Shown here in pieces: positions 1 to 3,272 of a stretch of 64,000 nt of DNA. This stretch comes from Kaistia granuli DSM 23481 (lineage in GTDB: Bacteria > Pseudomonadota > Alphaproteobacteria > Rhizobiales > Kaistiaceae). A model generated the notes under the pieces. That model was given only the letters and a program-made list of their open reading frames with translations, did not search any database and was not told the DNA's origin. Position 1 is the first letter of the stretch. Every line of letters starts with the position of its first letter. The stretch spans positions 1 through 64,000 of the forward strand of contig NZ_AQYH01000006.1 in NCBI RefSeq assembly GCF_000380505.1, written 5' to 3'. The translations under genes and the position numbers were made by a program.

Positions 1-72
1 GACCGTTTCCTTGGCGACGTCGATGCCGAGGATGCGCGGCACCGTCTCGACGGCTGGGCTGGGTGATGGCAT
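1..72 (-). CDS. IS110-family transposase, N-terminal fragment (cut by window edge)
   Basis: Only the first 24 codons are inside the window; the rest lies to the left. The fragment reads from an ATG at 72 and contains GIDVAKETV. In IS110/IS1111 recombinases the start of the RuvC-like DEDD domain has the form G-[IVL]-D-[VT]-[AS]-K, with the Asp as the first catalytic acid. These enzymes move a circular intermediate without terminal inverted repeats and, in the IS110 group, are guided by a bridge RNA encoded upstream of the gene. Whether the gene is intact cannot be judged here. The family assignment rests on a short motif, but the motif is characteristic and the long structured leader agrees with it. 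Confidence 0.75.
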   Translation of the reverse strand, partial: MPSPSPAVETVPRILGIDVAKETV

Positions 73-88
73 GGTTTGTCCTGGCTTC

Positions 89-285
89 GGATTGTCTGCG
101 GGCTCGCGGGAACGCGGCCCCATCAAGTCAACAAGCAAGCGAAGCCGGTCCACCGCCGGACCCAGATGACGACGGGCAGGCGCCCGATCCCGGGACGGTC
201 TCGGCCATGGACGCGGGTTTCGGGATGGCCGTTTCGAAACCCGCAACCGGCCCAAACCATCTAGCAAATTCCAAACAGACAATCC
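89..285 (-). ncRNA. Candidate IS110 bridge RNA in the transposase leader
   Basis: This noncoding stretch lies directly upstream of the transposase start. Read on the minus strand it is closed by a perfect 10-bp pairing between 276-285 and 89-98 (GGATTGTCTG with CAGACAATCC). Inside are a perfect 10-bp stem (235-244 with 213-222) enclosing a 12-nt loop, and a 5-bp hairpin (158-162 with 147-151) with a 6-nt loop. IS110-group elements are known to carry a structured bridge RNA of roughly this length in this position, with internal loops that pair to target and donor DNA. The structure is seen by eye only; expression, loop complementarity and the exact RNA ends are inferred. Confidence 0.45.
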
Positions 286-380
286 CGGGCTTGACCCGGG
301 ATCCATTCAGCCGAACGGTTGAGGGTGCGCATTCCCCAAATCCCGGCGGAATGGATCCCTGCCTTTCGCGGGGATGACGG
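281..380. repeat. Degenerate palindromic intergenic repeat
   Basis: The right part (350-380) contains TGGATCCC followed by GGGATGACGG and closely resembles the right arm of the perfect inverted-repeat element at 21538-21678. The left part contains a local palindrome (CCCGGG-CTTGA-CCCGGG within 284-300), and the decamers at 298-307 and 350-359 are inverted copies. It is therefore a diverged member of the same repeat family. The rest of the gap to 447 shows no gene. Confidence 0.6.
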
Positions 381-447
381 CAGTTTATCGGCACGGACCG
401 AGGCCCATATGGAGCCGGCCCAAGCGCCCCGGAGACGCCCCGCCTCC

Positions 448-2748
448 CTACGCCTTCTTCTTCACCACCAGGAGCGTCAGCGCGTTGATCGTCACCAGCA
501 CGGTGGCGCCGGTGTCGGCGAGGATGGCAGGCCACAGGCCGGTGATCCCGACGATCGTCGTCACCAGGAACACCGCCTTGAGGCCGAGGGCGATGACGAT
601 GTTCTGATGAATATTCCGCATCGTCCGCCGCGCCAGCCGGATCAACCGGGCGACATCGCCGACATTGTTGTTGAGGATCGCCGCATCGGCGGTCTCCAGC
701 GCCACGTCGGTGCCGCCGCCCATGGCGATGCCGACATCCGCAGCGGCGAGCGCCGGCGCGTCGTTGATGCCGTCGCCGACCTTGGCGACCTTGGCTCCGC
801 CGGCCTGCAATTCGCGGATGATGCGCTGCTTATCCTGCGGCAACAGTTCGGCCCGGACCTCGATGCCGAGATCGCCGCCGACCGCCTTTGCCGCCCGCGC
901 ATTGTCGCCGGTCAGCATGATCGGCGCGACATCGAGCGCCTTCAGCTCGGCAAGACCTTCCCTGGCGTCGGCACGAGGCCCGTCGCGCATGGCGATAATG
1001 CCTGTGATCGCGCCATTGACGAGCAGAACGGAGACGCTCTTGCCCTCGCCGCCGAGTGCGGCGATCGTCGCTTCCTGTTCGACCGTCAGCGGCGTGATCT
1101 CGGCAGCGGCGGCGGCCGAGCCCAACAGCAGGGCATCGGCTCCGACCTTGCCGGTCATGCCCTTGCCGGCGACGGCGGCGATTTCCTGCGCAACGATCGT
1201 CGGCGCCGCCATGTCCGTTGCCTTGCCGAGAATGGCGCGGGCGAGCGGATGGTTCGAGCCGGTCTCGAGCGAGGCGGCGAGCGCGATCACCTCGGCTTCC
1301 GTGCGGCCATAGCCGACGACGTCGCTGACCACCGGGCGGCCGAGCGTCAGCGTTCCGGTCTTGTCAAAGGCGACGCGGTTGATGCCGGCCAGCGTCTCCA
1401 GGACGGAGCCGCCCTTCATCAACAGGCCCTGGCGCGCGCCGGCGGCGAGGCCGGCCGCGATCGCGGCGGGCGTCGAGATCACCAGCGCGCAGGGGCAACC
1501 GATCAGCAGGATGGCGAGGCCCTTGTAGATCCACTCGCCCCAGTCGCCGCCGAAAGCGAGCGGCGGTACAATCGCCACCAGCGCGCCGACGACAAGCACG
1601 GCCGGCGTGTACCAGCGCGAGAAGCGATCGATGAAACGCTCGGTCGGCGCCTTGGCCTCCTGCGCTTCCTCCACCAGACGGACGATACGGGCGATCGTGT
1701 TGTCGGAAGCGACCGCCGTCACCTCGACGCGGATGACGCCGTCGGCGTTGATCGTGCCGGCGAAGACCGTGTCGCCGACGCCCTTGCGCTTCGGCACGCT
1801 CTCGCCGGTGACGGGAGCCTCGTCGATGGCGCTCTCGCCCCCGAGGATGAGGCCATCTGCGGCGATACGGTCGCCGGGACGGATCTGGATGATCGAGCCG
1901 AGCTGCAGGTCGGCGGCGGCAACCTCGCGCGTACCGCCCGCCTCCTCGACCCGCGCCGTCTCGGGCAACAGGGTCGCGAGACCACGGATGCTGGAACGGG
2001 CCCGGCGGGCCGCGACACCTTCCAGCAATTCGCCGATCAGGAACAGGAAGACGACCATCGCCGCTTCCTCGGCAGCGCCGATGATCACCGCGCCGACGGC
2101 GGCGATCGTCATCAGCGTCTCGATCGAGAACGGCGTGCCGTAGCGCGCCGCCATGAAAGCGCGCCGGGCGATCGGCACGAGGCCGAACAGCATGGCGATG
2201 GCGAAGGTGATCGGCTTCGTCTCCGGGAAGAGATGCGAAACCAGGAAGGCGACGACGATCGCGGCGCCGGCGGCGAACGTCAGCCGCGCCTTCTTCGACT
2301 GCCACCAGGCGCCATCATCCTCGCCGACGTCATGGCTGTGCAGGTCGATTTTTGGCGCAGCGGCGGCGACCGGCGCGGCAGGCGAATGGCCGTGATCGTG
2401 GTCATGATCGTGAGAACCGTGATCATGGCTGTGGCCGTGGTGATGGGCGCCATGATCATGGTCATGCCCCCCGCATGCATCGTGGTCATGCTCCTGCGGC
2501 GCAGGCGCCGGCGCGACAGGAGCCGCGCGGGCCGCGAGCGGCGCGATCCCATAGCCGAGCTTGGCGACGATCTTCTGGATCGGATCCGCCGGATCCAACG
2601 CCTCGCCGCGCCGCACCGTCATCGTGCCGGCGGACACCGAGACCGAGACATCCTCGACGCCATCGATTCGGCGCACAGCCGTATCGATCTTCTGCGCGCA
2701 GGAAGCGCAGTCCATCCCGGTGATGCGGTAGCGGTCCTGAATGCCCAT
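448..2748 (-). CDS. zntA: Zn2+/Cd2+/Pb2+-exporting P1B-type ATPase
   Basis: This inner-membrane pump uses ATP to export soft divalent metals. It begins with a heavy-metal-associated domain (GMDCASC, Cys14 and Cys17). A very His- and Asp-rich linker at about residues 85-130 probably also binds metal. Then come the P-type ATPase blocks: the transmembrane CPC motif near residue 417, which with Ser/Thr neighbours is typical of ZntA-type rather than copper pumps; the phosphorylation site DKTGTLT near 463; and GDGINDAPA near 657. At 766 residues the length is normal. The gene diverges from a MerR-type regulator across a promoter with the long spacer typical of MerR targets, which implies metal-induced expression. 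Zinc/cadmium is favoured over cobalt, but the substrate is inferred. Confidence 0.92.
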   Translation of the reverse strand: MGIQDRYRITGMDCASCAQKIDTAVRRIDGVEDVSVSVSAGTMTVRRGEALDPADPIQKIVAKLGYGIAPLAARAAPVAPAPAPQEHDHDACGGHDHDHGAHHHGHSHDHGSHDHDHDHGHSPAAPVAAAAPKIDLHSHDVGEDDGAWWQSKKARLTFAAGAAIVVAFLVSHLFPETKPITFAIAMLFGLVPIARRAFMAARYGTPFSIETLMTIAAVGAVIIGAAEEAAMVVFLFLIGELLEGVAARRARSSIRGLATLLPETARVEEAGGTREVAAADLQLGSIIQIRPGDRIAADGLILGGESAIDEAPVTGESVPKRKGVGDTVFAGTINADGVIRVEVTAVASDNTIARIVRLVEEAQEAKAPTERFIDRFSRWYTPAVLVVGALVAIVPPLAFGGDWGEWIYKGLAILLIGCPCALVISTPAAIAAGLAAGARQGLLMKGGSVLETLAGINRVAFDKTGTLTLGRPVVSDVVGYGRTEAEVIALAASLETGSNHPLARAILGKATDMAAPTIVAQEIAAVAGKGMTGKVGADALLLGSAAAAAEITPLTVEQEATIAALGGEGKSVSVLLVNGAITGIIAMRDGPRADAREGLAELKALDVAPIMLTGDNARAAKAVGGDLGIEVRAELLPQDKQRIIRELQAGGAKVAKVGDGINDAPALAAADVGIAMGGGTDVALETADAAILNNNVGDVARLIRLARRTMRNIHQNIVIALGLKAVFLVTTIVGITGLWPAILADTGATVLVTINALTLLVVKKKA

Positions 2749-2803
2749 GATCAGCTCTCGAATTCGGCCTCGTGGAGAAAGGCTCTTGTGCGGTTCGAGG
2801 GAG

Positions 2804-2834
2804 AGCCTACATGCTCTAGCGACTAGAGGATCAA
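2804..2834 (-). promoter_or_regulatory. MerR-type zntA promoter with palindromic operator
   Basis: On the minus strand a -35 TTGATC (2829-2834) is followed by a 19-bp spacer and a -10 TAGGCT (2804-2809). The spacer holds a perfect dyad, CTCTAG-N3-CTAGAG (2814-2828). A 19- to 20-bp spacer carrying the operator is the hallmark of promoters activated by DNA distortion by MerR-family proteins. The regulator gene starts 18 bases beyond the dyad on the other strand, so the site could also autoregulate it. Confidence 0.8.
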
Positions 2835-2846
2835 GAGGGTAATTCG

Positions 2847-3272
2847 ATGAGCCGGACGGTTCCCATTGGCACGGTTTCGCGCGAGACCGGCATCAAGGTT
2901 CCCACCATTCGCTATTATGAGGAGGTCGGTCTGCTGCCGTCGCCGGTGCGCACCGACAGCAACCGGAGGAGCTATGACGCGGCGGCCGTGCAGCGTTTGC
3001 GCTTCATCCGCCATGCGCGCGAGCTGGGCTTCGAGGTCGAGGCGATCCGCCAGCTGCTGACGCTTTCCGACCAGCCGGACCGTTCCTGCGCCGAGGTTGA
3101 TGTCATCGCCCGCAGCCATCTGGCCGAGATCGACGAGAAGATCGCGCGCCTGACGGCGCTGCGCTCCGAGGTTCAGCGCATGGTCGACGAGGGCGCGCAC
3201 GGCCGGGTCGCCGAATGCCGCGTCATCGAGGTGCTCGGCGACCATGCGACTTGCCTGCACGAGACGCATTAA
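2847..3272 (+). CDS. MerR-family heavy-metal-responsive regulator (ZntR/CadR-like)
   Basis: This 141-residue protein has the MerR winged helix-turn-helix at the N terminus (IGTVSRETGIKVPTIRYYE, residues 7-25) and a dimerisation helix around residues 80-115. Cysteines at 81, 124 and 136 and a His-rich tail (HATCLHETH) fit the three-Cys pattern used by CadR/PbrR/ZntR proteins to bind Zn, Cd or Pb. The start is supported by an AAGAGGG ribosome site eight bases upstream. It is divergent from the efflux ATPase and presumably activates it through the dyad at 2814-2828. Which metal is preferred cannot be decided from sequence. Confidence 0.9.
   Translation: MSRTVPIGTVSRETGIKVPTIRYYEEVGLLPSPVRTDSNRRSYDAAAVQRLRFIRHARELGFEVEAIRQLLTLSDQPDRSCAEVDVIARSHLAEIDEKIARLTALRSEVQRMVDEGAHGRVAECRVIEVLGDHATCLHETH

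What the first reader, a model, noticed from the sequence alone, without database searches (positions are those of the whole stretch)
89..285. IS110 leader folds like a bridge RNA
The leader of the IS110-type transposase is closed by a perfect 10-bp stem spanning 197 bases and contains a 10-bp hairpin with a 12-base loop and a smaller hairpin. Bridge RNAs sit in this position in the IS110 group. The loop sequences could encode the donor and target of this particular element. Seen: inverted repeats. Known: IS110 bridge RNA location. Inferred: function.
Basis: partly seen in the sequence, partly recalled or inferred. Interest (0 to 1): 0.65.

Follow-up and report, generated by a model that had tools for sequence, protein, structure and literature searches.

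The report
Bridge RNA of a REP-targeting IS110 element
The DNA in front of this jumping gene encodes a guide RNA of a known kind whose four short guide stretches match the element's own two ends and the repeated DNA site where its copies sit, so its target can be read directly from its sequence.

Summary
The inverted repeats are real and lie where stated. The leader is, by sequence, an IS110-group bridge RNA on the minus strand at about window 251-82: a 5' stem-loop, a target-binding loop and a donor-binding loop. All four guides match DNA: CCCGGGAT and CGTCATC spell the target CCCGGGATGACG, an intergenic repeat; TGACTTGAT equals the element's right end; CAGACAAT complements its left end. Seven left and six right ends in this genome carry these junctions; 2 of 13 same-genus genomes keep the empty site. 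Eleven leaders show compensatory changes. Left target guides change with their own flank (109 of 140 matches against 60.6 permuted, 0 of 20000); right target and left donor guides do so too. Correction: the 10-bp 'closing stem' is most likely no RNA stem but the right donor guide, complementary to left-end DNA; its other arm includes two bases outside the element and lies upstream of the predicted transcription start. The guides lie in internal loops, not in the 12-base hairpin loop. Verdict: a well-supported new member of a known kind. RNA expression and activity are untested.

The parts
284..381 (-). left flank: REP-like intergenic repeat ending GGATCCCGGGTCAAGCCCGGG, the left half of the target site
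   Evidence: 37 further matches in the own genome besides the 7 element copies, a few of them the same place on both strands; only 40 of 160 candidates were scored; arm CCCGGGAT with perfect opposite arm ATCCCGGG
282..283 (-). AT core shared by target, left end and right end
   Evidence: compare ..GGAT|TGTCTG with ..CTTGAT|GACG in own copies and ..CAAT|TGTCTC with ..GTTGAT|GACG in relatives
264..281 (-). left end (right donor) TGTCTG and spacer of the predicted circle-junction promoter
   Evidence: TTGATT + 17 nt + TAGATG when right and left ends are abutted (read); inference
258..263 (-). predicted -10 box TAGATG of the junction promoter
   Evidence: read; its A is invariant in 11 of 11 aligned leaders
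82..251 (-). bridge RNA (5' end predicted at about 251; 3' end uncertain)
   Evidence: covariance model R1 match 244-82 (this sequence is one of the 11 it was built from); start inferred from the promoter
213..244 (-). 5' stem-loop, 10 bp with a 12-nt loop
   Evidence: change on both sides at 9 of 13 pairs
197..212 (-). target-binding loop, 5' outer arm
187..194 (-). left target guide CCCGGGAT
   Evidence: equals the left flank of own copies (8 of 8 bases in six copies, 7 of 8 in the C10 copy L007); covaries with own flank in relatives
172..185 (-). apical hairpin of the target-binding loop
165..171 (-). right target guide CGTCATC, complement of GATGACG
   Evidence: right flanks GATGACG in 5 of 6 and GATGACA in 1 of 6 own right ends; covaries in relatives
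147..162 (-). target-binding loop, 3' outer arm
   Evidence: own arms pair at least as well as any other element's arm for 23 of 30 elements, ties counted
133..136 (-). donor-binding loop, 5' closing arm GCTT (alternative longer stem GGCTTCG/CGAAGCC)
   Evidence: invariant in 11 of 11, hence not tested by covariation
122..130 (-). left donor guide TGACTTGAT
   Evidence: identical to the right end of 6 of 6 own right ends
99..121 (-). apical hairpin of the donor-binding loop
84..87 (-). donor-binding loop, 3' closing arm AAGC
1..72 (-). start of the IS110-type transposase (MPSPSPAVETVPRILGIDVAKETV...), cut by the contig end
   Evidence: extended to 41 codons by another copy; the C-terminal part on other contigs carries Transposase_20

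Best explanation
This is the left end of an IS110-group insertion sequence that encodes its bridge RNA between the left end and the transposase gene. When the element excises as a circle, the joined ends (ACTTGAT|TGTCTG) form a promoter (TTGATT-17 nt-TAGATG) that drives an RNA of about 170 nt from near window 251. Its second stem-loop pairs with the genomic target CCCGGGATGACG in a REP-like repeat through CCCGGGAT (bottom strand) and CGTCATC (top strand). Its third stem-loop pairs with the circle junction through TGACTTGAT (right end) and CAGACAAT (left end). The recombinase exchanges strands at the shared AT core and inserts the element in one orientation. Shown here by sequence: architecture, guide matches, occupied and empty sites, covariation. 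Inferred from IS621: RNA expression, circle formation, catalysis and the order of steps.
For: Seven own-genome left ends and six right ends share exact junctions at CCGG-GAT-GAC. None of 20000 dinucleotide shuffles of the leader holds all four guides; singly they occur in 372, 280, 4 and 7 of 20000. Of 13 same-genus loci, 6 have the window's left-flank gene next to the right flank found on contig C10, and 2 of these hold the uninterrupted CCCGGGATGACGG. 34 exact 12-mers CCCGGGATGACG in the genome against 1 for the reversed control. Eleven leaders: 97.1% of cells paired, 13 of 28 pairs with changes on both sides, covariation score 0.465 against 0.127 shuffled and at most 0.123 for slid partners. 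Guides taken from the model alignment match their own left flank: 109 of 140 against 60.6, 0 of 20000; ten elements not used to build the model: 50 of 70 against 27.6, 0 of 20000. Right target guides match their own right flank: 114 of 119 against 96.8 permuted, 0 of 20000; left donor guides fit their own right ends: 140 of 170 against 124.8 permuted, 0 of 5000 (17 elements). Sister elements L098 and L102 differ in a guide base and, in the same way, in the matching flank base. The C-terminal part carries Pfam PF02371 and aligns to the IS621 transposase including its SG motif.
Against: No RNA-seq or activity data. The middle of the transposase was not found in this assembly (PF01548: no match in the own genome), so intactness is unknown. 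The own fold is only moderately more stable than shuffles (z -2.0, 6 of 200 as stable). The donor-loop closing stem never varies, so covariation does not test it. Some relatives fit poorly: left target guide 2 of 7 in L165 and in L170 (register shift), 4 of 7 in L150 and L037; left donor guides of L131, L150, L114 and L104 fit no or little better than shuffled guides singly (253, 182, 139 and 43 of 500 as good); L109's right flank fits the right target guide at 4 of 7; L107's right end shows no TTGAT. The left ends were placed by their best match to the right donor guide, so that match is not an independent test.
Confidence: 0.95

Rival explanations
1. The leader is one RNA domain closed by the 10-bp stem 89-98/276-285, for example a structured 5' leader that regulates the transposase.
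For: The 10-bp repeat is perfect and the minimum-energy fold of 290-80 uses it (z -2.5). The 7-bp inner part is present in 11 of 11 leaders, though the leaders were cut out by searching for those very strings, so this is partly by construction.
Against: The two outer pairs lie in host DNA and are kept in only 6 and 5 of 11 relatives' rows. The predicted promoter is downstream of the arm. Guide-like matches of the same kind exist for three other stretches whose partners lie in target DNA or at the other end of the element and so cannot be an RNA stem of the leader.
Confidence: 0.04
2. An IS1111-type element with a downstream seekRNA, the leader being unrelated.
For: Same transposase superfamily.
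Against: The RNA model matches upstream of the transposase, and in the own copies the right end has no non-coding DNA beyond the stop codon, whose last base is the first core base.
Confidence: 0.01
3. A genuine bridge RNA of a dead element: guides preserved by recent spread, but transposase inactivated.
For: No full-length transposase was found in the assembly.
Against: Copies are nearly identical and open at both ends of the gene; contig breaks inside repeats explain the gap.
Confidence: 0.1

Closest known systems
IS621 (Escherichia coli, IS110 group) and its bridge RNA; Durrant et al. 2024, PMC11208160 (section 6 and passages seen)
   Same: RNA in the left end upstream of the recombinase; 5' stem-loop then target and donor loops; 5' side of each loop pairs with the bottom strand, 3' side with the top strand; promoter rebuilt by joining the ends; inserts in REP repeats; SG motif shared.
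   Different: AT core instead of CT; different guides; target CCCGGGATGACG; left donor made of the last codons and stop of the transposase gene (IS621's right end was not compared here).
ISRm19 of Sinorhizobium meliloti (IS110 family, 4 of 4 copies in REP); Tobes and Pareja 2006, PMC1525189 (passages seen)
   Same: Alphaproteobacterial IS110 element inserted in REP repeats.
   Different: Its sequence was not compared here; the 2006 paper predates the bridge RNA papers.
IS1111/IS110 seekRNA; PMC11187229 (passages seen)
   Same: RNA-guided target choice reading both strands; natural reprogramming reported.
   Different: IS1111 members have subterminal inverted repeats and a downstream non-coding region.

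Membership tests
IS110 group with bridge RNA | DEDD plus Transposase_20 recombinase | tested here: inconclusive
   C-terminal part of own element hits PF02371 (62 bits); own N-terminal piece gives no Pfam hit, being 24 residues, though it reads GIDVAK; relative L103 (66% over the C-terminus) has both domains
IS110 group with bridge RNA | non-coding RNA upstream of the recombinase in a long left end, short right end | tested here: met
[quoted passage not shown]
   the donor stem is invariant, so supported by folding and conservation only
IS110 group with bridge RNA | target loop matches left target and complements right target | tested here: met
IS110 group with bridge RNA | donor loop matches right end and complements left end | tested here: met
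IS110 group with bridge RNA | promoter formed at the circle junction | tested here: inconclusive
   TTGATT-17-TAGATG by sequence only
IS110 group with bridge RNA | RNA expressed, bound by the recombinase and needed for insertion | not testable with these tools
   needs experiment
IS1111 group | RNA downstream of the recombinase | tested here: not met
   right end reaches its core within the stop codon; RNA model matches upstream
IS1111 group | subterminal inverted repeats | not tested
   not searched for separately

The most novel reading that the evidence does not exclude
A lineage of IS110 elements scattered over alphaproteobacteria keeps its donor end fused to the transposase stop codon (the stop's last base is the first core base) and a nearly fixed right target guide (GATGACG/GATGACA), and follows different host repeat families by small changes of the left target guide: a natural series of retargeting steps visible between sister elements.
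Probability: 0.5. Interest if true: 0.5.

Novelty: new member of a known kind. Interest (0 to 1): 0.4.

Why it matters
Bridge RNAs are programmable recombination guides. This element and its relatives give readable sets of four guides with their occupied and, for this element, empty sites, including sister elements whose guides and targets differ at the same base.

Tried and rejected
Rfam release 15 gives no match in the window at gathering thresholds and none at E up to 1 in 1-500. The 24-residue N-terminal piece hit no Pfam family; the 41-residue piece found nothing outside the own genome among 397 order genomes and nothing in the plasmid collection. PF01548 in 397 genomes of the order gave 142 genomes with matches; of the 30 loci handed out none is close to this one by the N-terminal piece (best-scoring match 32% identity). 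DNA searches with the leader found no second carrier among the 28 genomes of the family, the 14 of the genus included; the few other matches were short. mafft-qinsi was not usable; a covariance model replaced it. In the class, 11 of 385 genomes, own included, match the model; of the ten others, L171 and L172 look like coding sequence. Short minus-strand matches are the palindromic first hairpin; none of these was used. For one search I used 28 of 50 rows of A3 (rows with left target and right donor loops of at least 10 nt); for, 20 of those 28 (5 dropped for an inexactly placed left end, 2 for a flank cut by the contig end, 1 duplicate); for, 30 of 50 rows, weak and closely related ones included; for, 17 elements (the 18 loci less two second copies, plus the own one). 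The idea that all relatives sit in palindromes was only partly borne out: 9 of 20 left flanks (L099 and L130, second copies, included) have an opposite arm with at most one mismatch. Print was searched only through, none of them worded for the lineage pattern; PMC8450116 and PMC11208158 were seen in search listings only.

Full report
Observation. Two perfect 10-bp pairs arise in 46 of 5000 dinucleotide shuffles, at least one in 153. The gene is on the minus strand, starts at 72 and leaves the window at 1, which is the end of contig C6.

The element. The leader occurs seven times in the genome, each copy cut by a contig end within the first codons of the transposase. All seven begin at the same point of an intergenic repeat..CCGGGAT|TGTCTGTTTGG; six have CCCGGGAT, the C10 copy TCCGGGAT. 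I fetched both ends of the 20 contigs (one reads N) and found six right ends: the transposase ends ..LLKPDATELT-stop and the DNA passes straight into the repeat, GAACTGACTTGAT|GAC. The stop codon overlaps the AT core, so the right end has no non-coding DNA. Of the six right flanks five read GATGACG and one GATGACA. In 6 of 13 same-genus loci the gene beside the window's left half lies next to the sequence at the start of contig C10, which links one left and one right end. Two of these 6 keep the uninterrupted repeat CCCGGGATGACGG; the other four have different sequence at that place; in the remaining seven the right flank was not found. The exact 12-mer CCCGGGATGACG occurs 34 times in the genome, its reversed control once.

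The RNA. Read on the minus strand, the leader holds in order CCCGGGAT (194-187), CGTCATC (171-165), TGACTTGAT (130-122) and CAGACAAT (98-91). These equal or complement the left target, right target, right end and left end; no shuffle of 20000 held all four. The arrangement is that published for IS621: first internal loop for target, second for donor, 5' side pairing with the bottom strand and 3' side with the top strand (PMC11208160, section 6). With the ends abutted, TTGATT-17 nt-TAGATG appears; by eye in the output, TTGATT with a hexamer beginning TA 17 nt later is seen in 7 of 11 elements, own included. IS621's RNA also starts from a promoter rebuilt by excision. The RNA would then start near 251 and exclude the 276-285 arm. 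This start is inferred.

Relatives. Twelve loci were read closely; ten of them (L131 left out as degenerate, L099 as a second copy) and this one make the eleven leaders aligned from left end to right donor guide. RNAalifold gives the 7-bp left-end pairing, the 5' stem-loop, the target stem and the apical hairpins, with changes on both sides in 14 of 32 pairs; the seven left-end pairs never vary, partly because the leaders were located by those strings. On the trimmed alignment the named structure has 97.1% paired cells, changes on both sides in 13 of 28 pairs, and a covariation score of 0.465 against 0.127 shuffled and at most 0.123 for slid partners. These changes lie in the 5' stem-loop (9 pairs), the target-loop stem (3) and its apical hairpin (1); the donor-loop helices hardly vary. 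An alignment-free test on 30 model matches, some weak (E up to 0.04) and some closely related, has each element's own arms pairing best, ties counted, in 23 of 30 for the target stem and 27 of 30 for the first hairpin, with 0 of 20000 permutations as good.

Guide-target covariation. Guides were cut from the model alignment without reference to the flanks, the left end was placed by best match to the right donor guide, and left target guide and flank were compared over seven positions: 109 of 140 matches for 20 elements against a permuted mean of 60.6; 83 of 105 against 44.7 for one per distinct guide; 50 of 70 against 27.6 for ten elements outside the model; 0 of 20000 each. Permutation ignores shared descent, so the sister pairs below carry separate weight. 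Examples are CCGGGAT/CCGGGAT (L098), GCGGGGAT/GCGGGGAT (L102), CCCTAGGAT/CCCTAGGAT (L119), CCTTAGGA/CCTTAGGA (L125) and CTCGC[A or G]AT in seven others, L143 among them though left out for its cut flank. L165 and L170 match poorly, the latter by a register shift. Right target guides match their own right flank at 114 of 119 positions against 96.8 permuted, 0 of 20000; TGTCATC goes with GATGACA in L098, L102 and L103, but not in L117 (GATGACG), and L109 fits at 4 of 7. L150 has another right target guide that matches at 7 of 7, L114 at 6 of 7. Left donor guides fit their own right ends with 140 of 170 against 124.8 permuted, 0 of 5000; singly the fit of L131, L150 and L114 is no better than that of shuffled guides, and L104's is borderline.

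Its 89-98 arm is the right donor guide with its neighbours; its 276-285 arm is flank, core and left end. The pairs outside the core are kept in 6 and 5 of 11 relatives' rows (L099 included). The isolated fold of 290-80 does use this pairing, so folding alone would mislead; this is the main result against my reading and is answered by inference from the promoter and from the outer pairs, not by an experiment.

Family. PF02371 is met by the own C-terminal part, which aligns to the IS621 and ISCro4 transposases in the PDB including the SG motif; that this serine is the catalytic one is recalled. Bridge RNA upstream and a short right end place it in the IS110 group, not IS1111. Insertion of IS110 elements into REP repeats is known (IS621; ISRm19 4 of 4, ISPpu9 7 of 7, PMC1525189 passages). 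The finding is therefore a new member of a known kind. The part that may be new is the lineage-level pattern: donor end fused to the stop codon, near-constant right guide, left guide changing with the host repeat. I saw no paper on it in the listings, which were not worded for it. The lineage is thinly spread: 11 of 385 class genomes, own included, match the model, two of them probably falsely.

Noticed in passing
L103:2115-2375: The first hairpin of this relative's bridge RNA is present twice in tandem (about 60-nt unit) between left end and target loop.
   Followed up: no
L116:2011-2377: The left end and first hairpin are duplicated in tandem in this Inquilinus copy, with an N nearby.
   Followed up: no
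L109:2755-2775: The right junction reads TTGATTGTGACG instead of TTGATGACG, three extra bases at the core.
   Followed up: no
L182:2843-3874: About 1 kb of other DNA sits between the ATPase gene and the empty repeat in this same-genus genome.
   Followed up: no
window 84-175: Two Agrobacterium tumefaciens plasmids (NZ_CP048553.1, NZ_CP048525.1) carry an unannotated stretch 76% identical to this part of the bridge RNA.
   Followed up: no
window 448-3272: Next to the element: a heavy-metal P-type ATPase gene with a histidine-rich stretch (448-2748) and a MerR-type regulator on the other strand (2847-3272); names from reading the translations, no family search run.
   Followed up: no
L168:1430-1640: A distant relative whose target loop holds GTCCATATAT and whose left flank reads GTCCATATAT (by eye), in a site without a clear palindrome.
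   Followed up: partly
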